DNA of 64,000 nt. Origin: Deroplatys truncata. Its lineage: Eukaryota > Arthropoda > Insecta > Mantodea > Mantidae. Shown one piece after another: positions 29,670 to 45,992 of this stretch (its first letter is position 1; every line of letters starts with the position of its first letter). Made by a program: the position numbers and the translations under genes. Where the stretch lies: the NCBI GenBank assembly GCA_030765065.1, contig CM060990.1, forward strand, positions 9,671,501 to 9,735,500. The letters run 5' to 3'. The notes beneath the pieces were generated by a model that was not told where the DNA came from, did no database searches, and worked only from the letters and a program-made list of their open reading frames with translations.

Positions 29670-29675
29670 AACGCC
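29670..29675. repeat. Polinton left target-site duplication
   Basis: AACGCC directly before the left TIR, against GACGCC after the right TIR (45987-45992), with one mismatch. Six bases is the usual Polinton duplication length. The sequence is part of the 58-bp satellite unit (CAGACGCCTGGTAACAC). Confidence 0.75.
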
Positions 29676-30235
29676 AGTAGTGTATGTCCCTGCTTATACA
29701 AATGGATTAACGCTAATCCTGCCGCTAGGGGCGCTAGTGTCGCTTTTAATCCGCTCGAGTGGCGGGAAATTTGAAGCGGCAGGATTGCGTTCGATCCAGA
29801 TGGATAAGCGGGACATTTTTTTCTTTCTTTATTCTTTCTGATACATGTTTTTTTTATTACTTATGGATTAAATACGAACATAATATGATGGATAAAATTA
29901 AATATATAAGAAATGTCCACGATGTGGCAAACTTAGGAGCTAAATGGGCCATGGTGTGATGGTTTGACCTATGGAATAACACTGGTTGTCACACTTTACG
30001 AACTAAAATGGTGTTTTTTCTTCACCATCGCGATGCTGGCATAGCGGCGAACTTGGGAACTAAGCTGCAAAAAAAGCGCGGCGCTGGTGCTAAGTAGGTG
30101 TAAGTACTAAGGAGGGTACGTCTTGAGGAGGTGTAAGTATTCGAAAGCAATGCGGCGACGGAGGCGAAGGGATTGGAGGCGAAGGAGGACAATTTTTTCG
30201 GCGGCGTTAGGGGCGGCGGGCGCGCGCGTGCATTT
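29676..30235 (+). repeat. Polinton left TIR
   Basis: About 560 bp, nearly identical by eye to the reverse complement of 45410-45986. Differences are a handful of substitutions, a 7-base against 11-base A run, and one missing copy of a roughly 17-bp AGGTGTAAGTA-type unit. It contains minus-strand AATAAA motifs (about 29831 and 29852-29857) that could end the leftward transcripts. Confidence 0.9.
29852..29857 (-). terminator. Candidate polyadenylation signal in left TIR
   Basis: AATAAA on the minus strand, about 470 bp downstream of the last leftward reading frame, with a second AATAAA near 29831. This is inferred from the motif and position only. Confidence 0.35.
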
Positions 30236-30327
30236 GTTTTTGGCACAGCGTTGGCATGGTGGTGAACTTTGGAACTAAGCACTGAGATATTTACATGTTG
30301 CACCTGGTGGTGACATTTGGAACTGTT

Positions 30328-30840
30328 TCACTCGCGCACGAAAATGATTTTGAAGTGCGTGGTGCACGATGTTTGTGTCACGTGATCACTATCTTCCTCG
30401 CTGCTGCTGCTGAACTTTGGGACATCTTCCGTGGTGACGCAGGTGATGAGTAGGTGAGAGAAGTTGTCGTGTAGCTCGCGGCTGAAGCAGGGTATGTAGA
30501 CGGATTCGGCAAATTCGTTGATGTGGCTGATGGGGAAGCATCCTTCATTGGTGACTCTGTAGCATAGAGCGGGTGTTTTGGAGGTACCCAAATAGACGGT
30601 GCACAGTGCGTCTGATTGGTGGCGATGGACTTGGAAAGGCTTGCAGGTGACGTTGACGACGTCGACGTCTTTGACGTCTAGTTTAATGGTGACGGTTTTG
30701 ACGTTGTCGAAGAAGGAGGTGAGGGTGGAGAGGACGTTTATGTGGAAGGGTAACTCTCCGGATTTGGAGAGCTGAGCTTGAAAAATGAGTTTGAAGTATA
30801 GGTTATTTCCTACGTTGAAGGAGTCGGTTTGGCAGGTCAT
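30328..30840 (-). CDS. Polinton small unknown protein 1
   Basis: An ATG at 30840 gives a 170-residue frame with segments such as NVGNNLYFKLIFQAQLSKSG and VTIKLDVKDVDVVNV and an acidic serine-rich stretch near the end (SSSSEEDSD). I do not recognise the family. The start overlaps the end of the upstream frame (which stops at 30803) by 38 bases in another phase. It may be an independent overlapping gene, or the C-terminal part of the upstream protein separated from it by a frameshift. It is the last gene before the left TIR. Confidence 0.5.
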   Translation of the reverse strand: MTCQTDSFNVGNNLYFKLIFQAQLSKSGELPFHINVLSTLTSFFDNVKTVTIKLDVKDVDVVNVTCKPFQVHRHQSDALCTVYLGTSKTPALCYRVTNEGCFPISHINEFAESVYIPCFSRELHDNFSHLLITCVTTEDVPKFSSSSEEDSDHVTQTSCTTHFKIIFVRE

Positions 30841-31153
30841 TGGGTATGTACGGCGTGAACTTGACAGCGTATCTTTTGAAGCCGTTTTTGAGAGTTTCTT
30901 CTCCTTGGTAGACGATGCAGAAGTTGGCCGTGTTGAGCTGTTGCACGAGCTCGGGAGATGCCTTGCCGAATCTTGAGGGTAGAAATACTTCTGTTTCGTT
31001 GTCGAGCTTGACCACAGTCTTTGTACCGTACTTGGTGTCCACGGACTTGACTTGTCGAACAAGGTACGGCACGTTTAATTGTAGTGCGGACACGCTGACG
31101 GTATTGGCGCTGCAGGTTAGGTTGTCTAGTTGTCGAAGAGCGTCTTGGGACAT
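30803..31153 (-). CDS. Polinton conserved small protein, possible OB-fold ssDNA-binding protein
   Basis: 116 residues from the ATG at 31153; a GTG 18 bases upstream is in frame but unlikely. The segment from PYLVRQVKSVDTKYGTKTVV through ETEVFLPSRF resembles proteins found in other Polintons and insect mobile elements (alternating strand pattern, xTKYGxxxVVxL). An OB-fold or single-strand-binding role is my inference from that pattern. The frame ends in the phase opposite to the overlapping downstream frame at 30840. Confidence 0.55.
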   Translation of the reverse strand: MSQDALRQLDNLTCSANTVSVSALQLNVPYLVRQVKSVDTKYGTKTVVKLDNETEVFLPSRFGKASPELVQQLNTANFCIVYQGEETLKNGFKRYAVKFTPYIPNDLPNRLLQRRK

Positions 31154-31279
31154 GGTCGGCAATTTTTTCACAAGGTGTTTCTAGGTGATGTGGCAGGTTG
31201 CGATATGGAGCGTAGACTAAAGCTGGTGTCACACGACGTCTGCCTTAGCGTGAACCTCGGCGTGCGTTTTCTGGGTAGG

Positions 31280-31555
31280 TCATGTACTCTTCCTGCTGTT
31301 GTACTTGCGCAGAAAGCACTGGATGCGTTGAGCAAGTTGGGCGAGATTTTCGTAGAATCCTTGGTAGCACCTGGTACACGAGTACGTATGTGGGTCTCGC
31401 AGATTGCAGCTGCACGTCGGATGAAAGCAGTTGGTGCAGTGATGCATTGTACACGGTACGTCTAACATGCCACGCCTGAGCGATCCACAGCAACTGAGTC
31501 TGAGAGCGTCGTGTATGCGAATATGACCGTTGAAAAAACACAGGAAGTACGTCAT
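31280..31555 (-). CDS. Cysteine-rich small Polinton protein
   Basis: 91 residues from ATG, with a dense cysteine/histidine pattern in the middle (MHHCTNCFHPTCSCN, then SCTRCYQGFY) that suggests one or two zinc-binding knuckles. The N-terminus is hydrophobic (TYFLCFFNGHI). The family is not recognised. The gene is colinear with its neighbours and separated from the upstream gene by only about 30 bases. Confidence 0.5.
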   Translation of the reverse strand: MTYFLCFFNGHIRIHDALRLSCCGSLRRGMLDVPCTMHHCTNCFHPTCSCNLRDPHTYSCTRCYQGFYENLAQLAQRIQCFLRKYNSRKST

Positions 31556-31583
31556 AGTGGTGGGAGGAGTTACATCCGGTGGT

Positions 31584-32132
31584 TTAGTGGCTCGACCACC
31601 AGAGGTTGCTTTTGACGTAGCTTATTCCTATGCCTTCGTCTTCATCTTGCACGAGAACACTGTTTTTCTCGGCGCTGAACATCCAATCGCCGTGGATGTG
31701 ATCGGGTAGGATATAAGGCGAGATATTGCCCAAATGCACGGTCAAACATTTACCGTAGCAGGTGAGTCCGTCGTTTCTCATGTGCAGCATTTTATCCGGT
31801 GAGATGTATTGTTGTTCGTAGAATACGATGTATAGGCCCCTCTTGGCAACAAATTGGAACAACTGATCGCCATCTTCGTCGCTTTTGTGAACCTCGTCGA
31901 GCTCAAGGGGGCTTACTTTAAAATCAATATCTCGCAAGCTGATGTTGGATATGACGTAGTGAATTTTTTCCTCGCAGCTGTGGCACTTTACGGTGATGGA
32001 TTTGGCGTCGTAGCGGTCATCGACCTAGTGCAGTGCGTAAGGTGTATTTCTCTTGGGGTGTCCTTGTAACTCGTAATTTTTAATCACCTTGAATCCATCG
32101 CAGTAGACGGATACGTAGTTGCGGTATCCCAT
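31584..32132 (-). pseudogene. Polinton unknown gene with an in-frame TAG
   Basis: From the ATG at 32132 one frame runs to the stop at 31584 (182 codons), interrupted only by TAG at 32025-32027. Both sides keep coding character: GYRNYVSVYCDGFKVIKNY before the stop, and KCHSCEEKIHYVISNISL and LTCYGKCLTVHLGNISPYIL after it. The two Cys-x2/3-Cys pairs may bind metal. The family is not recognised. Either the gene is inactivated or the TAG is read through. Confidence 0.5.
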
Positions 32133-32194
32133 GACGTGCGCTTGCTCAGACGTGTTTGAAGAGACTGATTTGCAGATCCGTCGTACCCTTTCCT

Positions 32195-33174
32195 TTATGC
32201 GACCTCTTGCATGTGCTGCAGGTAGTAGGCTTTGAGATAATGTTCCACTTCCAGGTAGGTTCTGAAAACGGCGCTGCGTATCCACTTTGTGAACCTGGAG
32301 AAATTCATGATTTCTTCGTGGTGATGATGCGCAGAACGCAAGTACCGCTTGTAAGCCAAGATCTGATTCTGCACGTCCGCCTCCTCTTTCTTCTTGTGAT
32401 GCAGGACGTTGCAGACGATCTTCTGCAGGGCGTTAAGCACGTACCATTCCTCCAGATTAAGCGAAACGGCATGCCCTTGTGCGCCTGTGATGCACAGTGT
32501 TAGCCTTCCGAAGCGGTTTCTAAAGACGATGGTGAGGTTTCCGTCGAGTTGGAGTTCTCGTAAAGGATGCTCGGCGCCGCTCATGCGACGACGTATCACA
32601 GCTGCTGCTTCGACAAGCTTGAGCCACTTTGCAGGGCTCATGACCGCCTTTTGGCGCATGCCGCACCTGATGACGGTGACCACCAGTGGGTGCGGCGGCA
32701 GAGGCGAAAATCCCACGCATACGAATTTGGTTTGACCGTGGTTGAGGAAGTAAATGTCCGATAATGGTCCCACGTTAAGCGGTCCTTTGGACGCGTACGC
32801 GCTGCGGAACGACTCCGTGCTGGCGCACGGCACCCGATGGTCGCAAATCTCGGACGGTTGCGCGAGAACTGGAGGAACCTCGAGGAGTTCTGGTTGCGAA
32901 ACGTTGCTGCTGGTGTGTGCTGAGTCCATCACGGGCTGCTGGTCCATCACGGGCTGCTGGTCCATCACGGGCTGCTGGTCCATCTCGGGCTGCTGGTCCA
33001 GCTGCTGTGTGTTGATGTCAAACGCACCGTCCGTGGTTACTTTAGGCTTCTTCTTTACAAGCGTCTGCATGGAACTGCAACAAGAACATACGTCTTAAGT
33101 CCTTAGAGACAAAACGAGTAACGTGCACTGACCTAGGTGCAGAAACCTTACCTGTGTTGCATGTGTTGAGACAT
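32195..33174 (-). CDS. Spliced Polinton gene: repeat-containing protein with possible PC4-like modules
   Basis: The long exon (33074 down to 32195) encodes KKKPKVTTDG, then four copies of a DQQP(V/E)M hexapeptide, then a globular part. That part has two stretches of beta strands ending in a conserved tryptophan (VMSPAKWLKLVEAA and VSLNLEEWYVLNALQKI). This resembles the ending of the PC4/p15 ssDNA-binding fold, but the resemblance is tentative. A consensus intron (33075-33151) lies just upstream. Splicing it joins a short exon whose ATG at 33174 is in frame. Without splicing, the ATG at 33070 serves. A second intron lies further upstream (33233-33320). Confidence 0.6.
33075..33151 (-). other. 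Candidate intron 2
   Basis: The donor reads ACACAG|GTAAGG and the acceptor TTCTTGTTGCAG|TT on the minus strand, 77 bp long. There is a branch-like GACTTAAGAC about 25 bases before the acceptor. Its removal preserves the reading frame from the ATG at 33174 into the long exon. Confidence 0.65.
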
Positions 33175-33232
33175 CGCGGCGCACTGTCGTCAGGAGGTGG
33201 TGGTGCACGACTTATACGAGCCGAAGCGCGTT

Positions 33233-33320
33233 CTGAAAAGCACAGAACACAAAACATTAAGCATACCGGAAAGTACCCATTTGTCGACGCATAGTTGAAA
33301 CCTATGTTTTCGGTACTCAC
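33233..33320 (-). other. Candidate intron 1
   Basis: The donor TTGAAG|GTGAGT lies only 9 bases after the protease stop codon. The acceptor GTGCTTTTCAG|AAC is preceded by a T-rich tract and a TGCTTAAT branch-like site. It is 88 bp long. Its position implies that the spliced transcript includes protease sequence. Confidence 0.6.
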
Positions 33321-33329
33321 CTTCAAGGA

Positions 33330-33820
33330 CTAGCAATTTTGATAAGGATGCGAGCACTGAGCGAGACACGCGTCTCTGTTAGTGTGGAGAATGTCGACGT
33401 CATTATGGTGGTAGTCGATGGCGTTAAATTTGGAAAAGAAGCTCTCTTTGGATAGGCCGGAGCAGCGGTGAGACAGGTAAGCGATGACGTAGTGACCCCG
33501 CAGGTGGTGCTGTCGTAGCCTTGCAGCCTTCTAATATTGTGCGACCATTTTGGGCCGCAGGTACGATTCAAAAATTTTAGAAAGTGAGGCGAAATTGGAC
33601 CTATGCCGTAACTGTCAAAGAACTCTCCACGTCGGTTCTTGCCGAAAAAGATGCAGACCTAATGTTTACCCGCTTTAGTGCTAGGATCGGTATTGGCGAC
33701 GAGAGCCAACGGCAGCTTTTCATGTCCGAGGGGTAGTCTATCGCTGGGGTAAACCCCAAGAAAGTAGAGACGCGTAGAAGGGCAGTTAGAGAGAAACTTG
33801 TGTATTTGAAACGTGTTCAT
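33330..33820 (-). pseudogene. Adenain-like (Ulp1-type) maturation cysteine protease, broken
   Basis: From the ATG at 33820 the frame reads FLGVYPSDRLPL and VANTDPSTKAGKH, then TAG (33659-33661) where the family has a tryptophan right after the catalytic His. It resumes in frame with the aspartate region (GEFFDSYGIGPISPHFLKFL) and continues to the Gln/Cys site (LQGYDSTTCG). A frameshift at about 33490-33500 directly after the catalytic Cys moves the C-terminal part into another frame, which ends at 33330. In the family this enzyme cleaves capsid precursors. Its ATG overlaps the major-capsid stop (ATGA). Two lesions make it inactive as written. Confidence 0.8.
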
Positions 33821-35103
33821 GATACCAAAATGGATCGATTGGCATCGATTTCGACGGTGCGATGTATCTCCGCCAACACCAGAACGATAATGGGCTCTGT
33901 TAGCTGTTTGTGAAAGCCTATACTTATAGACACAGTGCCATGTCTAAGTCCAGAGATATAGGAATCGTTTGCGCTCATGTCTGCAGTGAGATCAAAGGCC
34001 ATGACCGTGTATCCCTGTGGGTATTGTTTTCTAGAAATGGAGTGGCCTTCGTCTTTGAAATGAATTCCGAGACCATCCTGCAGGGTTTGAAAGCACTCGA
34101 TGAAATGCCCATCGTCAAAGTTGGGTCGCAGGGGTTGGGAGGGGAAGGGTTAGCCGTTGACGTACATTGGAAACGAATTCATGTTAAAGTGCTGAAGATG
34201 ATACGGGTTTTTAGTATAGTCGCCGTTGCATGCCTTGTCCGTCACCATGTCAACGACCACTCTTCTGGGAATTTGTCCTATGAAAACGTCGTTAAAAGTC
34301 ATGTTACTGCTTTCCTTGGGAATGCTGAGTGCGTGAAAGCTGACGTCCTTGAGATGGTACTTGGCGTTGCATTTCGCCAAGACCGCCTGATGAGCAAGTT
34401 TAATGGTGGGAGACGGCCTAACGGCTTTCAGATGCAGGGTGGCGGATTGAATTTCTGCGGACACTTTAAAATCCTTATTTTCGGTAAACAGATAAAACTG
34501 AGGAGAGGAGGGAGCCAACTTTATGGTGAGGCTGACGTTGTTGAGGAGCAGGTTTTCCTGCCTAAAAAGTGCGTTGGAGAGGCACCCAATGTGTTGTACG
34601 ACTTTACCTCCCTTGGTAAACCCCTGTCACCACAGAAAACCTTGATTGGCCGCAAACGTGTCCATGATGCCCGCGGTGTCCATCTTCCAAAGGGAGGCCT
34701 CAAGACGGGAGTTCATGGCATCGTTAGAATAATTGAGCAGAGTTTCGAGGTACGTTCTATAAGGGTAGCCGGGTTGCGGCATGGAAACGATGACATTGTT
34801 TAGCGACACTTCCACTTGCTGGAAGAGGGAACTGAGGGCGTTGTTGACCAAGGTGACGTTATCCTCTGCGGCGATCGCTTTTCCTTCGCCATCCACGATC
34901 CTCACGAACAGCTCTAGTTTCACATAAGTCATGTCCAGGTAATCGTCGGCGTTGCCGGAATAATGAAAGGTGATGGGAGCATTCTTTATAATAGTATTTT
35001 GTGGATTTAGGTAAATGAAGCGATAGTCCTCTACGTTCATTTGAACAGGAAGGTCTCTAAAGAGGTCCAGCTCTGAGCTCATGTGAACGGTTGCTTCGGC
35101 CAT
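33817..35103 (-). pseudogene. Major capsid protein (double jelly-roll, hexon-like), two nonsense codons
   Basis: One frame of 428 codons runs from the ATG at 35103 to TGA at 33817. It is interrupted by TGA (34627-34629) and TAA (34150-34152) but never shifts. Family landmarks are in order: SELDLFRDLPVQMNVED, SLFQQVEVSLNNVIVSMP, YPYRTYLETLLNY, QENLLLNNVSLTIKL, AKYHLKDVSFHALSIPK, GQIPRRVVVDMV, then GYTVMAFDLTADMS and VEIDANRSILVS. It would form the capsid trimers. The start overlaps the upstream stop as TAATG and the end overlaps the protease start as ATGA. The two premature stops would give a truncated protein unless read through. Confidence 0.85.
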
Positions 35104-35534
35104 TACGAAAAGATGTCTTGCACCTTTCGCCTACAGCGTTTGGTCTTAGACTGCGCGAATGTCTTGGATTTTGTGCGTTTTATTCTCTTGATGCGCCCCA
35201 TGCCCGAACCCAGCATAGAGTCGATCTTTTCGTCTGCTTTTCGCTTGAGATTCGAACCTGCCTCCTTAAGTCTCGTATTAAGCGATTCCTTAGGAGATGT
35301 TCCGGAAGCGGCCACGTCAGCAAGCACGTTTGCGCCTACTTTCAGTGCCTCCTTTCCTACGGTCTTTGCCCCGCTTTTGAGAAATGGAAGAATGGTTCTG
35401 AAAAGGCCTCCTAGGGCAGAAAACGGGCCGCTTCCTTTTTGATAGCGCCTAACTCTGTAGAGAACGAAATTTCGGTCGTCTAAAGCGCCACCGGCCTGAT
35501 TGAGATAGTAGTGCGTGGCGGTGTGCACATCCAT
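35103..35534 (-). CDS. pVI-like virion protein, intact
   Basis: 143 residues from the ATG at 35534, uninterrupted. The hydrophobic-amphipathic block FSALGGLFRTILPFLKSGAK followed by VGKEALKVGANVLADVA is a recurrent Polinton signature. The C-terminus is strongly basic (KRKADEKI, then GRIKRIKRTKSK). In relatives this type of protein is compared with adenovirus protein VI (membrane-active, capsid-internal). That role is family knowledge, not shown here. Its ATG overlaps the minor-capsid stop (TAATG) and its stop overlaps the major-capsid ATG (TAATG). Confidence 0.7.
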   Translation of the reverse strand: MDVHTATHYYLNQAGGALDDRNFVLYRVRRYQKGSGPFSALGGLFRTILPFLKSGAKTVGKEALKVGANVLADVAASGTSPKESLNTRLKEAGSNLKRKADEKIDSMLGSGMGRIKRIKRTKSKTFAQSKTKRCRRKVQDIFS

Positions 35535-36648
35535 TATTGCGGTTTGGGGCGAAAGGTGAGAACTACAGTGGAGGAAAATCCGTCAGCAAATGGCAACAGA
35601 TCGCCAAAACCGTTCCTTAAATCTATGTTGACCGTCTTGAAATCTCGCTGCATAAGAGGTATCCAATTCAGAGGAAAAAATTACTTTTCATCGGTCATGT
35701 ACGTGTTGTTGCTTTTTTTCGTATTCCACCGCCGCGCTCTCTATGACCTGTACAAAGGTATCGCCCTACACTTGTGGAACTACTAGATTGCAGTAGATGA
35801 ACATTTCGTAAGGAAATCCCATATGCGGATCTACGGGGTGTGTAGCGTCTGGGTGAAGTACGAGGTTGGTAAAGGGCTGGAAGCCGAGCATTTTTGCTAA
35901 AGCCGGAGACAGTAGCAAACTGTGAATGAGGTGCTTAGTTTCGGCGGGTGCAGCAGTTTCCATCGGGGCGTTTACGTCCGAGGTGGTTGGCGCAGTTTGT
36001 GGTTTGGGGACGTTCGGAGTGGTTTGCGGAGTTTCTGTCGGCTTAGGCGCACTATGTAGCGGCTTAGTTGCAGGTTTTGAGGGCAACGCATGTTGCGGTT
36101 TTGACGGGGTATGTCCCGGCTTCGGTCTGCTGGTAGACTTTGTTTTCTGTTTCGGCGCGTCGCTGAGGTAATCCATTTTCGCAGGGGTTAGCCGCTTTTT
36201 TGAACGCACCACGTTTTCTACAATGCCATCAAGTGCAATGTCGGGTAACATATCAGGATGAGTGGCCGCATCGTTCACGCTTGCCTTTCCTTCGACTTCG
36301 TTGTAAACAAAAGATCTTTTACATTGAGATGATCGTGAATAACAGCGTTTATGGTGTTTACCAACTCTTTTGGTTGGTGCTGGATGGCTTCAGGCATATG
36401 TAAACTATACTTGGAACGCGTGGGCTGGCGCGTCATGGTGTACTTTGTGCCTATAATTTGACTGGCGTGCTTTGCGACATTATAAAATTTAACGGGGTAC
36501 CTAAACTTTTGGAGTGCCACTTCCCATTCTCCCTGCAGCACGATTCTTTCTGGCAATATGTTTGAAAATTTGGCCGTTGTGTTGTCTGTGAAATGGTCCA
36601 TGGACGCGTTGCTCACAAGGTGATGGAAAATGGTTGGGTTTTAATCAT
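35534..36648 (-). pseudogene. Minor capsid protein (penton-like), multiply broken, with proline-rich insert
   Basis: The ATG at 36648 overlaps the integrase stop (ATGA). The N-terminal signature NILPERIVLQGEWEVALQ is typical of Polinton minor capsid proteins. The middle keeps LLLSPALAKMLGF and YEMFIYCNLVVPQ. The C-terminal beta-strand part (NIDLRNGFGDLLPF) ends at TAA 35534-35536. Lesions are a frameshift near 36617, a frameshift near 36290, TAG at 35766-35768 and a frameshift near 35690. Between the N- and C-terminal parts sits a Pro/Thr/Lys-rich insert (about 35930-36170) with many PKP and TPxxxP steps, probably a flexible linker. Confidence 0.7.
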
Positions 36649-37700
36649 AGCGATTGGACGGTCGAAGCCTGTACCCAAGAGTTGAATTTGGAAAAATATC
36701 CTCTCCACTTGACCAAAAACTGCTTGTTGCGACCGCTACCACGGGTTTGCACAATGCGGTCTATTTGAAACGTTTCAGGAAGCGCTACCTCTTGCAGTTC
36801 CTCGGCGTAGAAGTTGCCGTCTATGTCTTCGTCGGCTAGGTCCTTCAATTTATATACCACCGGAGATCCGTGCAGGACCTTGGAAACCTGAAATATTTCG
36901 TGTGTCCAATTTTGCTCGTACCCCTTATCGAACTTCATTTTTTCTTTAGAAATACGGACGTGATCCCCGACTTTAAATTTATCTGCCCTGGTTTCAGGCA
37001 TGCGCCTGCCAGCGTACAAATTGTGGTAGACCTGCAAAATGTTGGAAGCGTTGACGTCTTTTGGGGCCATTTTTATAGATCTGTGATAGGAACTGTTGTA
37101 CGACTTGACCAACTCCGGTAGAACCTCCACGTATCTATAACTGTGTTTGTGCGTGAAATACTTCCACATCTTGGTTTTAAGGGTACGGTAAAAGCGTTCT
37201 ACAACGCTGGCTTTGACATTATTTTTAGTGGTGTAATGTTCTACGCCGTGTTTCCTTAGAAAATCGCGAAAAGTCTTGTTGGTGAACTCTGTGCCTTTGT
37301 CGGTTTGCAGCACCTTCGGAACGCGCTCGGAAATGATGGTCTTAAAGGCTTGCGTGACTTCGGTGCCTACCTTTGTCTTTAAAGGTACTGCCCAGGCGTA
37401 CTTGGAGAATACGTCAAACACGGTTAGAATGTACACGTACGGTTGGTTGTGCTCCTTGACGGCATTCATCACGTTAAGATCGGCTTCCCTAAGATCGTCT
37501 ATATTGGTTACGTGATAGTATCTGGTGGGAAACCGTTTTCGCACCGGTTTGAGAAAGGTGTGATTGTCTTGCGTTCGAAGAAAGGACTCAATGCTAGACT
37601 TTGGTAAAACCGTGGCTTTGCGAAGCGCGTTTACGGTGTCTAACCCTGCATAATGATCTGGCCGGTCGTAATAGCTCTTTATGGCGGTCCACTCCATCAT
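36645..37700 (-). CDS. INT: Retroviral-type integrase with C-terminal chromodomain, intact
   Basis: 351 residues without interruption. The catalytic core has D74 (READLNV), D134 (LQTDKGTEF) and E168 (VVERFYRTLK), plus the typical VFDVFSKYAWAVPLKTK strand. An SH3-like region (KFKVGDHVRISKEK, about 241-305) follows. A chromodomain closes the protein (about 311-351, FQIDRIVQTRG, then FLVKWRGY and a further W). No complete HHCC zinc motif is visible at the N-terminus. It should insert the element through the TIRs and produce 6-bp duplications. The chromodomain may direct it to methylated-histone chromatin. Both ends overlap neighbouring genes (ATGATG before, ATGA after). Confidence 0.92.
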   Translation of the reverse strand: MMEWTAIKSYYDRPDHYAGLDTVNALRKATVLPKSSIESFLRTQDNHTFLKPVRKRFPTRYYHVTNIDDLREADLNVMNAVKEHNQPYVYILTVFDVFSKYAWAVPLKTKVGTEVTQAFKTIISERVPKVLQTDKGTEFTNKTFRDFLRKHGVEHYTTKNNVKASVVERFYRTLKTKMWKYFTHKHSYRYVEVLPELVKSYNSSYHRSIKMAPKDVNASNILQVYHNLYAGRRMPETRADKFKVGDHVRISKEKMKFDKGYEQNWTHEIFQVSKVLHGSPVVYKLKDLADEDIDGNFYAEELQEVALPETFQIDRIVQTRGSGRNKQFLVKWRGYFSKFNSWVQASTVQSL

Positions 37701-38098
37701 TTACTTGAACAGAGGTTGCCACCTTCGCTTGCGAAGGTTATAGTTGGGTTTTTCTTGTGTTTTCTGGGGGACGCAGGTTTAGGTCTCGCTTTGTTGGTAG
37801 ACGATGCTTGGAATATCTTCTGTTCTTGTTTCACCTCTACGTCTTCGTACACGTCCTCCAACTGAAAGTCGTCGTCGTCATCGTCACGTTGCAGGTAAGG
37901 CTGTCTCACTTGTGTAACGAGTCCCAGATAGTTTCCCAATTTATATTTCAGTAGTTGCCACTTTTCGGGTGGGGATAGCTTTGCTCGGTGCACGCTATCT
38001 ATTTCTTTGGCTAATCTATAGATGGATTTGTCTATCGTGTGAAGCTTATCGACCGCTTTGGGCTGCGCCGCTACCACGATTTGCTTACCGTACTTCAT
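37697..38098 (-). CDS. Polinton conserved unknown protein
   Basis: 133 residues from the ATG at 38098, which overlaps the stop of the upstream pX-like gene as TGATG; the GTG at 38101 is in frame but less likely. The N-terminal half is helical and basic (KLHTIDKSIYRLAKEIDSVH). The middle has six consecutive Asp (QRDDDDDDFQLEDVYEDVEV), and the tail is Lys/Pro-rich. The function is not recognised. Its position between the pX-like and integrase genes suggests a virion or DNA-associated protein. Its stop overlaps the integrase ATG (ATGATG). Confidence 0.6.
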   Translation of the reverse strand: MKYGKQIVVAAQPKAVDKLHTIDKSIYRLAKEIDSVHRAKLSPPEKWQLLKYKLGNYLGLVTQVRQPYLQRDDDDDDFQLEDVYEDVEVKQEQKIFQASSTNKARPKPASPRKHKKNPTITFASEGGNLCSSK

Positions 38099-38465
38099 CA
38101 CGCAAACTTTGATATGAGAGCGCTACCTAGCGAGGCCAGCACGGGTATAAGGAATGCCGGTAAGAACCCTCCTTTTTCCACCAAGATTTTTTCTTCTTCT
38201 TCAACGACAGCTTCTTGTCGACTGACTTTCTCCACGCGGTTTTATGCCTTTTTAAACGATTCAGACTTTTGGCCGGTAATGGCACGTTGCCCTTAGTCAC
38301 GTTCAGCATGCATTCCGAAATGGCTTTCACCAGTTCTGGGCTAGCATGCTTTAGTAACGTTTTCCGCAGAGCAGGCTTCGCCCTTGCTATAACAGTTAAA
38401 TTTCCGTGCTGTCTCGCCACCAGCGGACTGCTAAGTTTCGCCATGCTCAACCTTCCTCTAGCCAT
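38098..38465 (-). pseudogene. pX-like basic protein with hydrophobic Gly-Gly tail, frameshifted
   Basis: From the ATG at 38465 the frame encodes RKTLLKHASPELVKAISECM and LPAKSLNRLKRHKTAWRKSV, then a lysine run. In a six-base T run on the plus strand (38187-38192) the coding potential moves to another phase. There it continues as a Gly-Gly-Phe-Leu-Pro hydrophobic tail ending in TGA at 38098-38100. This layout (basic body, GGFLP-type tail) is conserved in Polintons and recalls adenovirus core protein X. The unshifted frame ends at 38127 with an unrelated tail. A homopolymer length error or slippage could also explain it. Confidence 0.7.
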
Positions 38466-38507
38466 GCTTGCTCCACAATGACAGCCGTTGCCACTTTAAC
38501 GCGTTAT

Positions 38508-39162
38508 TTAAAATCCACACTCGTTGGGCACAAAGTACGAGAGAGTTTCTTCCGGCAACACACCAGTTCGATATCTGTACCGATCGGGTGTATACTGCGT
38601 GCAGTCCAGCACCAGATAGCCGTGCGGATGCTTGGTAGCCTTTTCAAAAGCTTCCAGCAGAAACCTAGAGTTCCTAGGATCAATCTGCTGGCAAAGCCTT
38701 TCGATCTGCATCTTGTCTCGGTTGTTCTTAAACGCCACGATATAATTGGCGATATAGGGAAATAGTTCTATATTTCTTTCCTTGAGGAAACACGTTTTGC
38801 AGAATGTACATGATCCCAAAGCGCTTGTGATGCGAATCTCTCTTGAAAAAATTGGACACGTGGTCCCCTCCACCTTCGAGCATAAGATCATCTAGAATCA
38901 CGAGGTAGTTCTCTCCCACCGATTGCAATTCCGGAATGCCCGCGTGCGTTTCGCATACCACTGTAAATCGGCCCAGTTTTGGAGAATATTCCAGAGGGTG
39001 GCACCACAGCACCTTTTTAGGCACGCGCTCAAACATGTGGCGGGCGTTGCGTATCAAGCTTTTCACAAAGGTGGATTTTCAGCATCGCGAAGGCCCAGCA
39101 ATTAGCATGGTGCAGGGGAAACTAAATTGCCTGTGGATGTCATGGTATCCGCCCAAGTTCAT
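38508..39162 (-). pseudogene. FtsK/HerA-type genome-packaging ATPase, broken in the P-loop
   Basis: From the ATG at 39162 the frame reaches LIAGPSRC and then TGA (39079-39081), at the position of the conserved Walker A glycine. KSTFVKSLIRNARHMF follows in the same frame. Walker B is LVILDDLML, and LQNVFPQGKKYR is the family sensor region. A frameshift at about 38745-38752 moves the rest (NYIVAFKNNRDKMQI, then HPHGYLVLDCTQYTPD) to another phase ending at 38508. The product would translocate DNA into capsids. As written it is dead twice over. Confidence 0.85.
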
Positions 39163-39244
39163 TGTGCCTCTAAGTGGGTATAGTGCGTATAAATGAACCT
39201 TCGTGTGAAGGAGCGTCACATTTTATGATGCACCTTTACTCGCG

Positions 39245-39260
39245 CCTTCTCTTATACCCG
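39245..39260 (-). promoter_or_regulatory. Candidate TATA box for the structural-gene transcript
   Basis: Minus-strand GGGTATAAGAGAAGG lies just downstream of the polymerase stop and about 90 bases before the ATPase ATG. It is the only clear TATA-like site that I see in this gap. A short hairpin (CCTTCACACGAAGG) follows. Confidence 0.35.
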
Positions 39261-39265
39261 TAAGA

Positions 39266-42200
39266 TTAGGAGTCAAAGTTGTCGACTAGCACGCGCTTGT
39301 TTACTACCATGCGAAAGGTCTTGAAATCGGGCTGGGTCACCACGGCCCAACCGGGTTTTCTCGAAATGTGTGTTCCCCTCAGCGTCATCGACCTAGTGCG
39401 GTCGCGGAGAACCACGTCGCGAATGACGTCGGCATTCACGCGCTTCAAGTTGCCAGAATTAAGCGTGATGCCCTTGATCTTGCACACAGAGAAGGTCTTA
39501 TCGCCTTCGGGACACGTGATCTCGAGACTATAGCTTTTTGGCCCCGTGGAGGAAAAGCGGGAGATGTACGCACCCTTCCCGTACTTCTCCAGTTCGTCCG
39601 TCATGTCGCCCAGGAAGCGCCCCGCGGACGGCATCCACTGCCCCGGTGCCGCGGTGGCGATGATGGAGTCGGTATCAAAGTAGCACACCCGTTCTTCGAG
39701 TCGTTTCAGGTATGTATAAAGCACTAGGCGCGTGTGTGCCGTAGTGTAGGCCACAATGACAGCGTTGGTCGTGGGGTTCAACCGGGAACTTTGCTCGCAG
39801 TACCTCCACACCACGTACATCTTCTCGTCCATGGTAAGCATGTACGACTGCACCTCTACTCCCGGGTCGTTGAGCAAATCGATCAGTCTATCGTAACGGT
39901 CCACCAGCTCGCTCTTAGGCAGATTGTCCCTCTGGCCGTATTTTCCCCAAAGGGAGTTGAGCATCAACTTGGCCAGTTCTCGCCTGCCAGGATTTTCGGC
40001 AATGGCTTGAGGATCCAGGGCAATGCCTTCGCGCTCCAAGAATTGCTTAACGTATTGCTCCTTTGCGACAGGCCTGTCGGCATCGGAGGGCCAACCGGAG
40101 GTTTCGGTCTTGATCTTTAGAAACGCATTGACGTAGTTCTCAAAGAGACCCTTCACCCGGTGGCTGGGTCGTATTGCACCACTTCGTACTCCCATATTTC
40201 ATGGACCTGCAATAATCGGTATCCTTCCTCCAGGGCGACTTTCATCTCGTCAACGACCCAGGTTCCCGTCATGGACCTGTCTTCGTCCTTGTGATGACAC
40301 TCCTCTTGGTTCTCCGCATCTGCACAAGCGCGACACAGCGGAAACATCATTTTGCCGTTAATGCGCGCCGGCAGCACAGGGTGATAAAGCCTTTGAGGCG
40401 GTAAGACCTTGCACTTGACGATGCCTCCCCGCACGTCTTCCAAGCGCGGAAAGTGATCCACGTGAATCTTTGGGTGACCCACAGGATAAGGCTTTGTCTT
40501 GTTGACGAACGGGTACAGGCTGCACACGTCGTAATAAAAAAGTTTCGTATCTCCAGAGGACTCGCAATACGTCCTGGTACAGTTGGTGTGGCCCCCGAAA
40601 AAGGCATCTCTAGGGTTTAAGGGTTGCGGAATGGGAAAATGTTCGGCATGGTGTGCTAGTTCCTCATTCGCCTTCATCATGGTGTTGAACTCGCACTCCC
40701 ACATTTCCACCACGGCATAGCCGGCATCCCTCAACTTCTTCCTGACCTCCGTGCTCTGGTATCTAGAAGCCATGGTTTCATTCCCCGTGCTGTGCACCGC
40801 GGCGTGCCGATATGGAAAGCATTTTGGGCAGCCGTGAAAGAAGCAACCGTGAAAGTTGTACACCGTCCTATCGTCCCTGTACCCGTCCAACTTGTGACCT
40901 TCGATAATGAGATCTCGTCCTCTCAGTGCGTGCGTGATGGTCACCTTTTCTTGCCGCTCCACCCAAGATAACCAAATGCACGCTATGCGCGATTGTCTGT
41001 CCGCCAGACGGTACCCGCCGCCGGGTATAACGGCAATCTTAACTTTTGGCATGAAGCGCTTTCTGTACACGTTCATGCACGCTTGTGCGATGGTGACGCA
41101 TTCTCTAAACGGATCGATGCCGTTCTCGTCAAGGAACTCCTTTCTAAACTTTAATACTCCCCGACTTAAGAGGAACACGTCCATTTTGCAATACGTCACC
41201 ATCTCGGCTTTCATGTCAGAAACATACCCGGAGGCGACCTTGTCTTCGTACCACTGCTCGAAAGCTCTTCGATCCTCTATGGACATGCCCTCTGGACAGT
41301 AATATCTTTGGTGAGGCATGGGTCCCACATACGTCTCGTTTCCCTTCCTGTTAAACAGGTAAGGAAAATAGCCTTTTCCGACCTTCAACTGAAAGGTTTT
41401 CGCAAATCGAGCCAGTGGCATGGGTATGAAGTTAAGCGAATCCACAAAAGTGACGTCACCGTGCTTCATTTTGTATATCTTGGTGCCGTTCATGATGAGT
41501 TCGGGCTCCCAATTTAACTCGCTCATCATGTACTGCAACAGAAATTGTCCGTCATAGCTTTTGAGGTTGTGTGCAATGACGATCACGTCCCAACCTTTAA
41601 ACCTGGGCTGGCGAATGTGTTCGAACAAGCGCTTTATCGGTTGGTCGTTAAACACCAGTTCCTTGGCTCCACATTTCGTGCAGTGCGCCATTTTGTGGTC
41701 TTCGTCGATGCACAATGGACAGACTTGATAAAGAACGCACAGGTTTGGCACGTGCACAAACGTACTCGCTTTGCCCAAATACAGCGTTTCCTGAGTACAT
41801 TCAAAATCGATAAATACAAACAGGTACCGATTTCGACAATTGGGGGCACGGTATGCTTGAATGTAGCACTTATGTCCTGGAAGAACATGCAACTTACAGT
41901 TACTACAAAATACTTCTGCACACTGGTGGGACGCCTTTCTCAGCCTCGTGTTCATCAGTTTGTTGCACAAGCGGCATACCTTTTCCACGTCGCAAACGGA
42001 CAAACATTTCGGATAAAAAGCCCCTTTTGCCAAGTGCTGTCCAAAACATAGCTGTCCCTTAAAATCGCGATAATACGCATTGCAATGCACGTAATGGTCA
42101 AATCTGTCAACGCACGGTTGATGGCATTTTGTGCATAGTTGGTCACAACGGCGGTACTCCTTTTTATGCTTATACGGATGGTTGCACCGTCTGCAGTAGG

Positions 42201-43052
42201 CCCTGCACTGAAAACATTTGTGCAGGTGTACTATGGCGTTAACATGCCCATCGTGGAGCATCAGATCGATGTTCTTTTTTCCGGCGTCCTGGGATTTATA
42301 CAGTACGTTTGTACCGGTGTGGTCTCCAAAGACCGTGATGGCATAATCTTTTAAAGACGTGTCAAATTTCTTTACTTCATCCAGAGTAAACCTATATTCC
42401 GTCTTCCCTATCGCTTCGCACAACGCTATCGCCTTCCGCTTTTGGAGAAACTCAGACCGCGTAATGGTTAGGTAATTCACATCGTGGTCTGCCCGTGCCT
42501 TGCTCACTGCAATGGCTCTTGGCATACATAAGGTATCATTGTTTCTTATTTCTATGATGCCTTTATTCTTTCTGCATTCATCGCAGCGCTTAAAACACCT
42601 GCGACCTCCTTCGTCCACACACAAGATATCTTGATTGGCCCCTGCATCAGAAAAACATTGTTACTTTGCATCACCTTTTGGATGCTTTGTAATATCGCTT
42701 CTGGGTTGACTTGATCTACACGGCGAACACTGACATTGAATGGTTTCGAAGGGGAATCCGTTATGGTTAAACCCAGAAATCCGGGGCTGTTTTCTAGTAG
42801 GTTCTCATTCGCAAATTTTAAAAAATCATTAAACACCTGCGAAATCCACTGCACTGGGTCTGCATGCTGTGGCATCGCGGACACAGAGATTTCTGTCTCC
42901 GTAAAACCCGAAAAAAATTTCTTCATCGTCCTTTGACGATGCTGCAAAATTTTAAAAGTAGGCTGCAAAACCCCCTCATCGTCACTTACCTCCTCCTCCT
43001 CCGGCCCTGCATGAGTGGATGTCACCGCTTGTGGTGTAGAGCTCTTCTCCAT
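39266..43052 (-). pseudogene. POLB: Protein-primed family B DNA polymerase (pPolB), two frameshifts
   Basis: The gene starts at the ATG at 43052 and ends at TAA 39266-39268, about 1,260 codons in three phases. The first part (to about 42610) encodes the N-terminal region ending QGPIKISCVW. A frameshift leads into a long Cys-rich part with many CxxC/CxxH pairs. The exonuclease motifs follow: FIDFECT, IAHNLKSYDGQF and YCKMDVFLL. NFHGCFFHGCPKC, typical of these enzymes, comes next, then motif A (YYDVCSLYPF). A second frameshift at about 40150-40165 precedes motif B (LMLNSLWGKYGQ) and motif C (CYFDTDS). All catalytic carboxylates are present, so only the reading phase is broken. The enzyme would replicate the element from the TIRs. 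Confidence 0.9.
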
Positions 43053-43065
43053 TATCTTTCACTCT

Positions 43066-43102
43066 GTTGTAACTGCGTTCGTTATGCCTTGTTATATATT
43101 CG
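43066..43102 (-). promoter_or_regulatory. Candidate core promoter of the polymerase gene
   Basis: The minus strand has TATATAA at 43098-43092 and an initiator-like GCAGTTA about 24 bases further on. The polymerase ATG comes only about 20 bases after that. The spacing fits an arthropod TATA/Inr promoter. It is motif-based inference. Confidence 0.45.
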
Positions 43103-43829
43103 CACTTGCGAGAGTCAAATAGTTACTCACTACACTAGTCCAAACAGCATTTTGCCATAAAATTCAACAGTTTCTTTTATTCCATATGCTAAACGTATAC
43201 GCACCTTTATCGTCAAACAACTGTTAAGTTTCTTTTCGTTAATTCAATAACATGCAGTGTTTATGTTACGCCAGCTTCAAAGCATTATTTTTTACCGCAC
43301 GAAGTTTTCATATAGCCTTATCGGCAACCGCAAACTTCCGTGCGAACTTGACCGTGAGTCAGCCGGCGACAGTCTGGCGCGCATCCGGTTCGGCAAGCAA
43401 ACATCCTGCTAACGGGCTGGATTGCCGGCAAGTACAGATTTCTTTCATTCACGCCTCGACAGTTGACTTCGACAGTAGCTACTGTGAACACGTGTGTCGT
43501 ACACTGTTTTTGACCGCTTTCGACCGGCAATGAGAACCCTGCTCCTACGTACGCTAGCGACCATTACGATGGTCCAGTACCAGGTTTTTGGTATAGTTAA
43601 ATTACGTCTTTGCAAAGGGCGTCTGTACCGCTTTAAAAAACCTAGGTATATCAGTGCGTAGTGATGTTGGTTGATCTTAAAGCTGGTTAAGCATTTTCAA
43701 AAACAGTTTGCTTTTATTTTTTCGCGTCTCGTGAAGCTGCTGCCCTTTTGGTGACGCATCAAGACCAGTAAGAGGTAAGTACCACACGTATAACTATTTT
43801 TCGGCCCTGCTTGGCGTAGGAATATATCG

Positions 43830-44105
43830 TTTAGTGTTTTGGTACTGGGTTTGAGACCAAACTACAAACTCCACATTCCACCACATTTAAAATAGCGTTG
43901 CGGTAGAAATACGTGATTCAGTGTTTTGGTACGGGGTTTGAGTTCCAAAGTAAAAAAGAAGTCCACATTCCACCAACATTCCTATTTAAAATACCGTTAA
44001 AGTTCACGTTTAATTCGAAGTTGTGATGTCACGTTCAAAACGAAGGTCCAAGGAGTAATTTTTCAATGTGTTGGGTTTTGGTATTGGGTTTCAATCCCAA
44101 CAGAT
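43830..44105 (+). repeat. Three degenerate repeats of GTTTTGGTAnnGGGTTT
   Basis: AGTGTTTTGGTACTGGGTTT (about 43834), AGTGTTTTGGTACGGGGTTT (about 43920) and a GGGTTTTGGTATTGGGTTT variant (about 44072). The first two also share the downstream CCACATTCCACCA and TTTAAAATA blocks. Confidence 0.65.
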
Positions 44106-44172
44106 GCGTTAACGATCACGGCTATCATCAATACCGACGCAAATCACCTTCACTTCGCCTTATTTATTCCGT

Positions 44173-44236
44173 TGTCCAATCCAATCACGTTTTATTTTCA
44201 CCAATCACAAAGAGTCTTATTTTCTCCAATCACAAC
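44173..44236 (+). promoter_or_regulatory. CCAAT-box cluster
   Basis: Four CCAAT motifs on the plus strand within about 60 bp. Three are followed by CAC or CACA, giving CCAATCAC. This is typical of NF-Y-type promoter clusters, but no rightward gene was identified. Confidence 0.45.
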
Positions 44237-44389
44237 ATGCCACGTCACTTCCTGCCTTCCTTTTTACACAAGCATTACATTTCTATGCTCTTTTGTGTTT
44301 TCAACTTTCGTGTTAGTTACTTGACTGCTTCCATTCTCGTTCAAGGTATGATATTTAGTTTTTCTTTTCTGAAATCTTCTTGACCACGC

Positions 44390-45195
44390 GCGTCCGCCAT
44401 CTTGTTTACTTTTCACAACATCAAATCTCCTCGTCACCACCTGTTGCGTTCGGCATCTTTCGCATGTTGACCCTAACCTCAAATCTCTTCGTCCCTCGAT
44501 TTCTTGCCTCCGCCATCTTGTTTAGTTCCCATTTTCTCCACTACGCCTCCGCCATCTTGGTTTTAGTTGTCCACGTTTACCTCATATTTTTAACCTAGAC
44601 TTCCTGCCCCCGCCATCTTGTTTAATTCCCATTTTTACCACCGCGCCTCACATCTTCTCGTCCCCCACCATTGCCTTCGCCATCTTGGATTTTGTTCCCA
44701 TACTTACGTCTGTTTAACCTAACAATCTTAACCTCAAATCTCCTTGCCCCCACCTCTTGCGTCCGCCATGTTCACCACTAACCTCGAAATCTCCTCGTCC
44801 TTAGACTTCTTGTCTCCGCCATCTTGTTTAGTTCCCATTTTCGCCACCGCGCCTCACATCTCCTCGTCCTCACCATTGCCTTCGCCATCTTGGATTACGT
44901 TCCCATGCTTACGTCCTGTTTTAACCTAAAAATCTTAACCTCAAATCTCCTTATCCTCCTGTTGCGTCCGCCATCTTGTTTAGTTCTCATTTTGGCCACC
45001 GCATCTCCCTGTCGCCGACCCTCCGCCATTTTTAACCTCAAAATCTGCTCTTCTAAGCTCTTACTTCCGCCATTTTGTTTTAGTTCCCATTCTCACCACC
45101 GCGTCTCCTTACCCCCACCTCTTGCGTCCGCCATGTTGACCACTAACCTCGAAATCTCCTCGTCCTTAGACTTCTTGTCTCCGCCATCTTGTTTA
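44390..45195 (+). promoter_or_regulatory. Cluster of 13 CGCCAT(C/T/G)TT motifs (YY1/Pho-like)
   Basis: CGCCAT followed by CTT, TTT or GTT occurs near 44396, 44511, 44550, 44611, 44688, 44766, 44817, 44886, 44969, 45026, 45069, 45130 and 45181. It is usually preceded by TC/CC and followed by GTTTAGTTCCCAT. The core equals the YY1/Pleiohomeotic binding consensus. The spacing is irregular (about 35-115 bp), so this is not a simple tandem repeat, although partial duplications (44750-44850 against 45115-45210) contributed. Confidence 0.6.
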
Positions 45196-45409
45196 GTTCC
45201 CATTTTCGCCACCGCGTCTCATATCACCCCATCTCTCTATCCACTCAAAAAACTACCATCCAACGTTCAAAAACACCTAACCTGCTCTCCCCCTTCCTCA
45301 TATCCTCCCTTGTATACCCTTCCTCACCCACCTGCACCAATAGCCAACATCCCTTACCTATGACGTCGTCCTATTTCACTCCCCACGTCCAACTCATCCT
45401 CTCAACCAA

Positions 45410-45986
45410 CGCACGTGCGCGCCCGCCGCCCCAAACGCCGCCGAAAAAATTGCCCTCCTTCGCCTCCAATCCCTTCGCCTCCGTCGCCGCAACGCTTTCC
45501 AATACTTACACCTCCTCAGTACGTACACCTCCTCAAGACGTACCCTCCTTAGTACTTACACCTACTTAGCACCAGCGCCGCGCTTTTTTTTTTTGCAGCT
45601 TAATTCCCAAGTTCGCCGCTATGCCAGCATCGCGATGGTGAAGAAAAAACACCATTTTAGTTCGTAAAGTGTGACAACCAGTGTTATTCCATAGGTCAAA
45701 CCATCACACCATGGCCCATTTAGCTCCTAAGTTTGCCACATCGTGGACATTTCTTATATATTTAATTTTATCCATCATATTATGTTTGTATTTAATCCAT
45801 AAATAATAAAAACCATGTATCAGAAAGAATAAAGAAAGAAAAAAAATGTCCCGCTTATCCATCTGGATCGAACGCAATCCTGCCGCTTCAAATTTCCCGC
45901 CACTCGAGCGGATTAAAAGCGACACTAGCGCCCCTAGCGGCAGGATTAGCGTTAATCCATTTGTATAAGCAGGGACATACACTACT
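45410..45986 (-). repeat. Polinton right TIR
   Basis: Reverse complement of 29676-30235 with few differences. It carries one additional AGGTGTACGTACTGAGG-type unit and a longer A/T run (11 against 7). It ends in ACT at 45986, directly before the GACGCC target copy. Confidence 0.9.
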
Positions 45987-45992
45987 GACGCC
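45987..45992. repeat. Polinton right target-site duplication
   Basis: GACGCC, matching AACGCC at 29670-29675 in 5 of 6 bases. It continues directly into the satellite sequence CTGGTAACACATGAGC. Confidence 0.75.

What the first reader, a model, noticed from the sequence alone, without database searches (positions are those of the whole stretch)
33817..38100. Six consecutive stop/start overlaps join seven Polinton genes: candidate termination-reinitiation polycistron
On the minus strand every junction from the pX-like gene to the protease overlaps. TGATG (38098) joins pX-like to the unknown, ATGATG (37697-37700) the unknown to integrase, and ATGA (36645-36648) integrase to minor capsid. TAATG (35534) joins minor capsid to pVI-like, TAATG (35103) pVI-like to major capsid, and ATGA (33817-33820) major capsid to protease. 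Three of these become visible only when frameshifts are recognised, so the overlaps look ancestral. Such overlaps serve termination-reinitiation in some RNA viruses and in insect non-LTR retrotransposons. I do not know of a described polycistronic translation system in Polintons. A single leftward late mRNA is the inference.
Basis: partly seen in the sequence, partly recalled or inferred. Interest (0 to 1): 0.88.

Follow-up and report, generated by a model that had tools for sequence, protein, structure and literature searches.

The report
Overlapping transposon genes with internal promoters
The virus-like genes of this giant jumping element do overlap end to start, but related copies suggest that most of them are switched on separately by promoters hidden inside the gene in front, rather than being read off one long message by ribosomes that stop and restart.

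Summary
A Polinton (about 29676-45986) carries seven leftward genes, pX to protease. Five of the six reported stop/start overlaps are real and ancestral: int/mCP ATGA and mCP/pVI TAATG stand at 33 of 33 places examined, and all five recur in four families 72-81% identical in DNA. The sixth (unknown/integrase ATGATG) comes from a frame change in the window's own copy; relatives have a stop 0 or 3 nt before the integrase ATG.

One mRNA decoded by successive reinitiations is disfavoured. Conserved TATA-like boxes, with initiator-like sequence about 30 nt on, lie inside the upstream ORF before integrase, minor capsid, pVI, major capsid and protease. Synonymous-codon shuffles give P about 0.001 in the two families with open genes; antisense and gene-body controls give 0.14-0.99. 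A fourth family, not used to pick the sites, keeps all five. Splice acceptors at gene ends are not enriched; no calicivirus-type motif is shared by the families. The element has two predicted conserved introns.

Best reading: nested Pol II promoters giving overlapping mRNAs, each translated from its first AUG. pX/unknown lacks a conserved internal promoter and remains a reinitiation candidate. No RNA data were available.

The parts
29676..45986 (-). Polinton element with terminal inverted repeats; imperfect 6-bp target duplication AACGCC / GACGCC (5 of 6)
   Evidence: inverted repeats 29672-30238 / 45404-45990; ends read by eye from the sequence printed
38098..38465 (-). pX-like gene (frame broken in this copy; ORF 38465-38127)
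   Evidence: an open relative gives a weak Adeno_PX match, E 0.028, below the curated cut-off
37697..38098 (-). gene of unknown function; frame changed before its 3' end in this copy
36645..37700 (-). integrase (rve core + chromodomain), open
   Evidence: Pfam PF00665 E 1.2e-13, PF00385 E 1.1e-7
35534..36648 (-). minor capsid protein-like gene (broken frames in this copy)
35103..35534 (-). pVI-like gene, 143 aa, open
33817..35103 (-). major capsid gene (broken frames in this copy; 428 aa in L043 and L044)
   Evidence: relatives named F54H12.2-like or coat protein, several in insects
33212..33820 (-). protease-like gene, broken in this copy; predicted last exon of 6 codons and stop at 33232-33212
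38096..38100 (-). TGATG junction pX/unknown (ATGA in the B families)
37695..37700 (-). ATGATG at unknown/integrase: overlap only in this copy; the family's stop is TAA at 37703-37701, directly before the ATG
36645..36648 (-). ATGA junction integrase/minor capsid, 33 of 33 places
35532..35536 (-). TAATG junction minor capsid/pVI, 33 of 33 places
35101..35105 (-). TAATG junction pVI/major capsid (22 TAATG and 1 TGATG of the 24 places covered)
33817..33820 (-). ATGA junction major capsid/protease (17 of the 18 places covered)
39249..39256 (-). TATA box (TATAAGAG) between PolB stop and ATPase gene
   Evidence: window only, conservation not tested
38476..38512 (-). pX promoter: TTTAAATAA 38512-38504 and TCATTG initiator-like site from 38481
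37936..37945 (-). internal TATA TATAAATTGG inside unknown ORF, 245 nt before integrase ATG
36848..36856 (-). internal TATA TATATAAAT inside integrase ORF, 208 nt before minor capsid ATG
35615..35623 (-). internal TATA-like GATTTAAGG inside minor capsid ORF, 89 nt before pVI ATG; lies in the longest invariant block of the late region
35177..35185 (-). internal TATA-like GAATAAAAC inside pVI ORF, about 80 nt before major capsid ATG; GCAGTC initiator-like site about 30 nt on
33923..33930 (-). internal TATA TCTATAAG inside major capsid ORF, about 110 nt before protease ATG
33233..33320 (-). predicted intron in protease gene (GTGAGT..TTTTCAG); spliced ends LKNALRLV / LKKTPLLI / LQNSLPLL / LQNALLLI in four families
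   Evidence: sequences, codons read by eye
33211..33216 (-). TATA box of the next gene; predicted protease stop TAA lies inside it
33075..33151 (-). predicted phase-2 intron of the 291-aa-ORF gene (GTAAGG..TTGCAG)

Best explanation
The seven genes are a compact, same-strand late cluster of a Polinton transcribed by host RNA polymerase II. Integrase, minor capsid, pVI, major capsid and protease each have their own TATA/initiator core promoter hidden in the preceding ORF (about 80 to 270 nt before their ATG); pX has one in front of it. These give a nested series of overlapping mRNAs, and each protein is made mainly by ordinary scanning to the 5'-proximal AUG of its own mRNA. The stop/start overlaps are then mostly the product of compaction. 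Shown: gene order, overlaps, conserved TATA-like sites and their non-random placement, conserved intron signals. Inferred: that the sites are transcription starts, that the mRNAs share 3' ends, and how they are translated.
For: Exact TATAA conserved in three families occurs three times in the compared stretch: before minor capsid, protease and the next gene. Ranked by conserved TATA+Inr score, the top sites are those before major capsid, minor capsid, the 291-aa-ORF gene, pVI and pX, with integrase and protease lower in the same list. Rotating the gene starts over the scores gives P 0.005-0.035. With amino acids and codon usage kept by synonymous shuffles, TATA+Inr upstream of the six starts has P 0.0007 (L044) and 0.0013 (L043), while antisense and gene-body windows give P 0.14-0.99. 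The fourth family L047, fetched later, has all five internal boxes at matching places. Of the six blocks of 12 nt or more invariant in four families, the longest (22 nt) is the pVI box and one of 14 nt is the minor capsid box. Nearest upstream ATG is far: 212, 411, 290, 164, 113, 158 nt in L044 against a mean gap of 66; from the predicted start sites the gene's own ATG comes first in 15 of 20 cases, five genes by four families (worked out). Conserved intron signals imply nuclear mRNA.
Against: No RNA evidence. The TATA matrix was recalled and the initiator weights are approximate; the -265..-40 window was set after seeing the -258 site. With other windows TATA+Inr P runs 0.0000-0.0107 (L044), 0.0007-0.064 (L043) and 0.025-0.26 (L047, only four genes usable); TATA alone is weaker, 0.02-0.05, 0.0007-0.35 and 0.10-0.45. 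The families share ancestry, so the P values are not independent. A site 272 nt before protease scores above the protease box itself. ATG scarcity is mostly loss of in-frame Met: codon-shuffle P 0.08 and 0.12; ATG ranks first of 18 triplets in L044 but second in L043 and L032 (the L032 major capsid start was placed 1 nt off there). Codon conservation in the promoter windows is 29 of 48 against 374 of 955 elsewhere (P 0.003), but this is partly circular: 16 of 19 at the box, 10 of 17 between, 7 of 18 at the expected initiator. The last 300 nt of minor capsid are conserved at third positions more broadly, so the pVI box is not alone there. Four of the six invariant blocks are at no box. Integrase is the weakest case: its predicted leader holds another ATG in three of four families (worked out). 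Unknown has no box among the 16 best conserved sites.
Confidence: 0.65

Rival explanations
1. One leftward late mRNA is translated by termination-reinitiation at every stop/start junction.
For: Five overlaps of the ATGA/TAATG/TGATG kind conserved in four families; UAAUG reinitiation is documented in the silkworm retrotransposon SART1 (passage in PMC5972666). L043 has TGGGA 24 nt before its integrase start (position, letters).
Against: Internal TATA/Inr-like sites. TGGG within 90 nt upstream of a start is shared by the three families tested only before minor capsid, where it is a Trp codon; it is found in 5 of 18 junction-by-family cases; 80-nt upstream windows do not fold above average. The unknown/integrase gap is 0-3 nt, not an overlap. 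Five sequential events at about 10% each before the major capsid would starve it (inference).
Confidence: 0.06
2. Mixed system, not exclusive of the best explanation: nested promoters for most genes, plus genuine reinitiation at pX/unknown (ATGA or TGATG) and possibly as back-up at the TAATG junctions on longer mRNAs.
For: Unknown has no conserved TATA site; in L044 at least three ATGs lie between the pX start and it, so simple leaky scanning is awkward; overlap kept in 32 of 33 places; downstream of the major capsid start the RNA folds more than average (z -2.3 and -1.8), and SART1 needs downstream structure (passage).
Against: No shared reinitiation motif; L043 has a TATA+Inr-like site 159 nt before unknown; similar downstream folding is seen after the pX start in both families (-1.8) and after integrase in L044 only (-2.3), so it is not special to TAATG.
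Confidence: 0.25
3. Adenovirus-like: one promoter and alternative splicing of a common leader to an acceptor before each gene.
For: The element has conserved intron signals; the order minor capsid, pVI, major capsid, protease resembles adenovirus L2-L3 (recalled); an acceptor-like site before pVI scores about as high as the acceptors of the two predicted introns.
Against: Acceptor scores at gene ends do not exceed codon shuffles (summed P 0.23-0.73). Donor-like strings aligned in three families: AGGTRA only in protease, GTRAG only inside minor capsid; none in a leader position.
Confidence: 0.08
4. The TATA-like sites are coincidences of conserved protein sequence, and expression works some other way (for example IRES or leaky scanning).
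For: Sites lie in conserved protein segments; single-site codon-shuffle P values run 0.01-0.75.
Against: Summed tests with matched controls, repeat in held-out L047.
Confidence: 0.15

Closest known systems
Herpesvirus tandem gene clusters (pseudorabies virus, PMC5042381, passages seen)
   Same: Pol II DNA virus; mono- and polycistronic transcripts in 3'-coterminal clusters; TATA boxes located inside the upstream gene (ul50); a poly(A) signal can double as a TATA box (compare GAATAAAAC before the major capsid gene).
   Different: No kinship of these genes was tested or is claimed; here the ORFs overlap at five of six junctions and the cluster includes an integrase; no transcript map exists.
Adenovirus late region (recalled)
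   Same: Order of penton-like, pVI, hexon-like, protease; nuclear transcription.
   Different: No sign of leader splicing to each gene.
Termination-reinitiation systems: murine norovirus VP2 (PMC2793014, abstract), influenza BM2 and SART1 (passages in PMC5972666)
   Same: UAAUG/AUGA stop-start strings.
   Different: RNA viruses or a retrotransposon with one junction; an upstream 18S-complementary motif is not shared by the families here.
Vertebrate Mavericks (PMC8097293, passages) and EMALE/mavirus virophages (PMC8547959, passages)
   Same: Same kind of element (the former); promoter motifs upstream of ORFs (virophages).
   Different: Intact vertebrate Mavericks are reported as intronless; virophage motifs were sought in 100-nt upstream regions and relate to giant-virus machinery.

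Membership tests
Polinton/Maverick | Terminal inverted repeats | tested here: met
Polinton/Maverick | Family B DNA polymerase (organellar and viral type) | tested here: met
   PF03175 E 2.2e-41; protein priming not tested
Polinton/Maverick | Retroviral-type integrase | tested here: met
   PF00665
Polinton/Maverick | Double jelly-roll major capsid, minor capsid, ATPase, protease | tested here: inconclusive
   Major capsid relatives by sequence; no Pfam or PDB sequence match; ATPase only weak P-loop matches below cut-off; the structure job failed
Polinton/Maverick | 6-bp target site duplication | tested here: inconclusive
   AACGCC/GACGCC, 5 of 6, read by eye; the exact-match scan in that call printed none
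Viral termination-reinitiation (TURBS) system | Stop and start codons overlapping or within a few nt | tested here: met
Viral termination-reinitiation (TURBS) system | Upstream UGGGA-type motif complementary to 18S rRNA | tested here: not met
   TGGG in 5 of 18 junction-by-family cases, shared only at a Trp codon before minor capsid; TGGGA itself only before integrase in L043. Complementarity to the host 18S was not computed
Viral termination-reinitiation (TURBS) system | Downstream structure as in SART1 | tested here: inconclusive
Viral termination-reinitiation (TURBS) system | Both cistrons translated from one mRNA | not testable with these tools
   no RNA data
Nested-promoter gene cluster (herpesvirus-like, analogy only) | Core promoter inside upstream ORF | tested here: met
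   sequence level only:
Nested-promoter gene cluster (herpesvirus-like, analogy only) | Shared 3' end / poly(A) signal | tested here: inconclusive
   Between 42567 and 29858 the only minus-strand AATAAA is the one in the major capsid box; ATTAAA at 32084 and elsewhere
Nested-promoter gene cluster (herpesvirus-like, analogy only) | Mapped nested transcripts | not testable with these tools
   no RNA data

The most novel reading that the evidence does not exclude
An animal Polinton combines two layers of compact gene expression: a ladder of Pol II promoters written into the coding sequence of each upstream gene, and stop/start-coupled reinitiation on the resulting polycistronic mRNAs, essential for the gene after pX and a stoichiometry control for pVI, major capsid and protease.
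Probability: 0.2. Interest if true: 0.75.

Novelty: new variant of a known kind. Interest (0 to 1): 0.5.

Why it matters
Polintons are seen as relatives of adenoviruses and other eukaryotic DNA viruses, yet the listings I saw showed no map of how an animal Polinton expresses its capsid genes (open-licence library only, most listings cut at 12-20 papers). The result gives base-level predictions (start sites, two introns, a protease tail of six codons) for families present in many copies, at least two of which have all seven late ORFs open, so the question becomes testable with ordinary RNA sequencing. It also warns that ATGA/TAATG overlaps in a eukaryotic DNA element are not by themselves evidence of reinitiation.

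Tried and rejected
Splicing to each gene: acceptor scores at gene ends are not above codon shuffles. Calicivirus-type motif: TGGG near a start is shared by the families only where a Trp codon forces it; L043 alone also has it before unknown and integrase. General synonymous conservation at gene ends: no consistent rise between L043 and L044 (that script failed after printing its table). First version of the motif script failed on a syntax error (rerun). Relatives outside this genome: five IMG/VR scans gave none, so junctions could be compared only within this genome. Protein relatives at 31-77% identity exist (120 listed of 197) but without DNA context. A poxvirus-like TAAATG late promoter at the start codons was considered and dropped: among the junctions printed, TAAATG occurs only at family A's unknown/integrase junction.
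Full report
What was checked. The minus-strand sequence 39600-33000 was read and each junction printed. All six strings are there. The window lies in a Polinton with inverted repeats at 29672-30238 and 45404-45990, in a 4.29-Gb genome of 818 contigs held without a name. An integrase search of that genome scored 116 matches (a lower bound, since only the best candidates are scored): 12 places (window included) at 89-100% protein identity and 104 at 74-75%. I fetched the 11 further copies of the first group (family A; L031-L041) and four of the second (L042-L045; L013-L030 give shorter stretches); a major-capsid search (97 matches) led to L046 and L047. The second group falls into several families, here called B1 (L044), B2 (L043) and B4 (L047), with L023 distinct too. 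Late-region DNA identity between L044, L043, L032 (A), L047 and L023 is 72-83%.

Overlaps. L043 and L044 have all seven late ORFs open as they stand: five overlaps and one 3-nt gap. Over 33 distinct places, int/mCP is ATGA in 33, mCP/pVI TAATG in 33, pX/unknown ATGA in 21 and TGATG in 11 (1 start lost), pVI/MCP TAATG in 22 and TGATG in 1 (1 stop lost, 9 not covered or unaligned), MCP/protease ATGA in 17 (1 start lost, 15 not covered or unaligned). Before the integrase ATG a stop triplet stands at 0 nt (11, the window's TAA included) or 3 nt (21), 1 other. Of the 12 family A copies the window alone reads the unknown ORF to a TGA that overlaps the ATG; four (L032, L033, L036, and L039 with its start codon lost) end in TAA abutting the ATG, and seven stop earlier. 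So five of the six reported overlaps are ancestral and one is a product of decay in this copy. Deciding this needed no mending, because open copies exist.

Why not a reinitiation chain. First, dosage: about 10% reinitiation is reported for influenza B and under 5% for a hypovirus (passages in PMC5972666); five steps of that kind would put the sixth cistron, the major capsid, far below the first (inference). Second, no shared signal: TGGG within 90 nt upstream of a start is common to the three families tested only before minor capsid, where it is the codon of a conserved Trp; L043 alone has it also before unknown and before integrase (there as TGGGA, 24 nt upstream); 80-nt upstream windows do not fold above average. 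Downstream, the RNA folds more after the major capsid start (z -2.3 and -1.8), after the pX start (-1.8 in both) and after integrase in L044 only (-2.3); I leave this open. Third, there are better candidates for how the genes are expressed.

Internal promoters. Comparing B1, B2 and A, exact TATAA is conserved at three positions in the compared 7-kb stretch: 206 nt before minor capsid, 108 nt before protease, and before the next gene. Conserved TTTAA lies 87 nt before pVI; conserved ATAAA 80 nt before major capsid and 257 nt before integrase. Scored with a TATA matrix (Bucher type, recalled) plus an arthropod-like initiator (approximate) 28-34 nt on, the best conserved sites are those before major capsid, minor capsid, the 291-aa-ORF gene, pVI and pX; an unexplained site 272 nt before protease, and those before integrase and protease, follow. 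Rotation of gene starts gives P 0.005-0.035 depending on the window and score. Synonymous-codon shuffles, which keep proteins and codon usage, give P 0.0007 and 0.0013 for the six upstream windows, while antisense windows, gene-body windows and gene-body antisense windows give 0.14-0.99. Sensitivity: over windows of 150-350 nt, TATA+Inr P is 0.0000-0.0107 in L044, 0.0007-0.064 in L043 and 0.025-0.26 in L047, where broken integrase and minor capsid frames leave four genes; TATA alone is weaker. The two open families are related, so these are not independent tests. L047 was fetched after the sites were chosen and keeps all five boxes. The longest invariant block across four families, AACATAGATTTAAGGAACGGTT, is the pVI box; the minor capsid box is one more of the six blocks of 12 nt or more, and the other four are at no box. 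The last 300 nt of minor capsid are well conserved at third positions in general. All boxes are present in the window copy.

First AUG. In L044 the nearest ATG in any frame upstream of unknown, integrase, minor capsid, pVI, major capsid and protease lies 212, 411, 290, 164, 113 and 158 nt away, against a mean ATG spacing of 66 (0 of 20000 resamples as large); in L043 and the window the effect is weaker (P 0.034 and 0.004). Most of it is loss of in-frame methionines: with proteins fixed, P is 0.08 and 0.12, and other triplets come close or exceed it. From the predicted start sites the gene's own ATG is first in 15 of 20 cases (five genes, four families; worked out); integrase fails in three of four and protease in two of four. 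Starts have a purine at -3 in 7/7, 7/7 and 6/7 cases against 32/51, 35/55 and 38/60 of other ATGs: weak support.

Splicing. The protease gene ends in a donor/acceptor pair (33320-33233 in the window) whose removal gives the same short tail in four families: LKNALRLV, LKKTPLLI, LQNSLPLL, LQNALLLI, each followed by a TAA that is part of the TATA box of the next gene (codons read by eye). The next gene (291-aa ORF at 33070) has its start codon in a first exon and a phase-2 intron (33151-33075). Intact vertebrate Mavericks are reported as intronless (PMC8097293, passages seen). Acceptors before the late genes themselves are not enriched, so the adenovirus manner is not indicated.

What is left open. 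Unknown has no box among the 16 best conserved sites, and pX/unknown keeps an overlap in 32 of 33 places; it is the one junction for which reinitiation is a fair explanation. Poly(A) sites were not found with confidence. All evidence is sequence only.

Literature. Ten library searches, listings seen, most of them cut at 10-20 of the papers found; seven aimed at Polintons or adintoviruses and none listed a transcript map of an animal Polinton by title or abstract start. Passages or abstracts were seen of PMC5972666, PMC8097293, PMC5042381, PMC8547959, PMC2793014 and PMC3561293; term searches inside PMC11071308 and PMC4028283 found no word beginning with transcri or promoter. Subscription papers were not available, so the absence is weak.

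Noticed in passing
G000 contig C16 (707 Mb), family A copies: All 12 integrase matches of the window's family (89-100% identity) lie on one contig holding 16.5% of the genome, while the 104 scored matches of the other families are spread in proportion (16 on C16), counted from the rows. This may point to a sex or otherwise special chromosome that keeps old copies.
   Followed up: no
window 37697-37703 and L032, L043, L044: Unknown and integrase are in the same reading frame, separated by one stop codon and at most one sense codon (coordinates), so a readthrough fusion is conceivable.
   Followed up: partly
window 33212-33216: The predicted protease stop codon TAA is part of the TATA box of the next gene in four families.
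   Followed up: yes
L042 about 1070-980 (strand -) and L044 about 6155-6170 (in gene direction): The intron of the 291-aa-ORF gene carries an ATT repeat of very different length in two B1 copies.
   Followed up: no
window 42552-43052: The 166-aa ORF upstream of PolB looks like the PolB N-terminus split off by a frame change in this copy; judged by eye.
   Followed up: no
window 52990-53062 (minus): tRNA gene by Rfam (53.5 bits), outside the element.
   Followed up: no
L044 4106-4190 and L043 4229-4313 (in gene direction): RNA just downstream of the major capsid TAATG folds more than the local average in both open families (z -2.3 and -1.8).
   Followed up: partly
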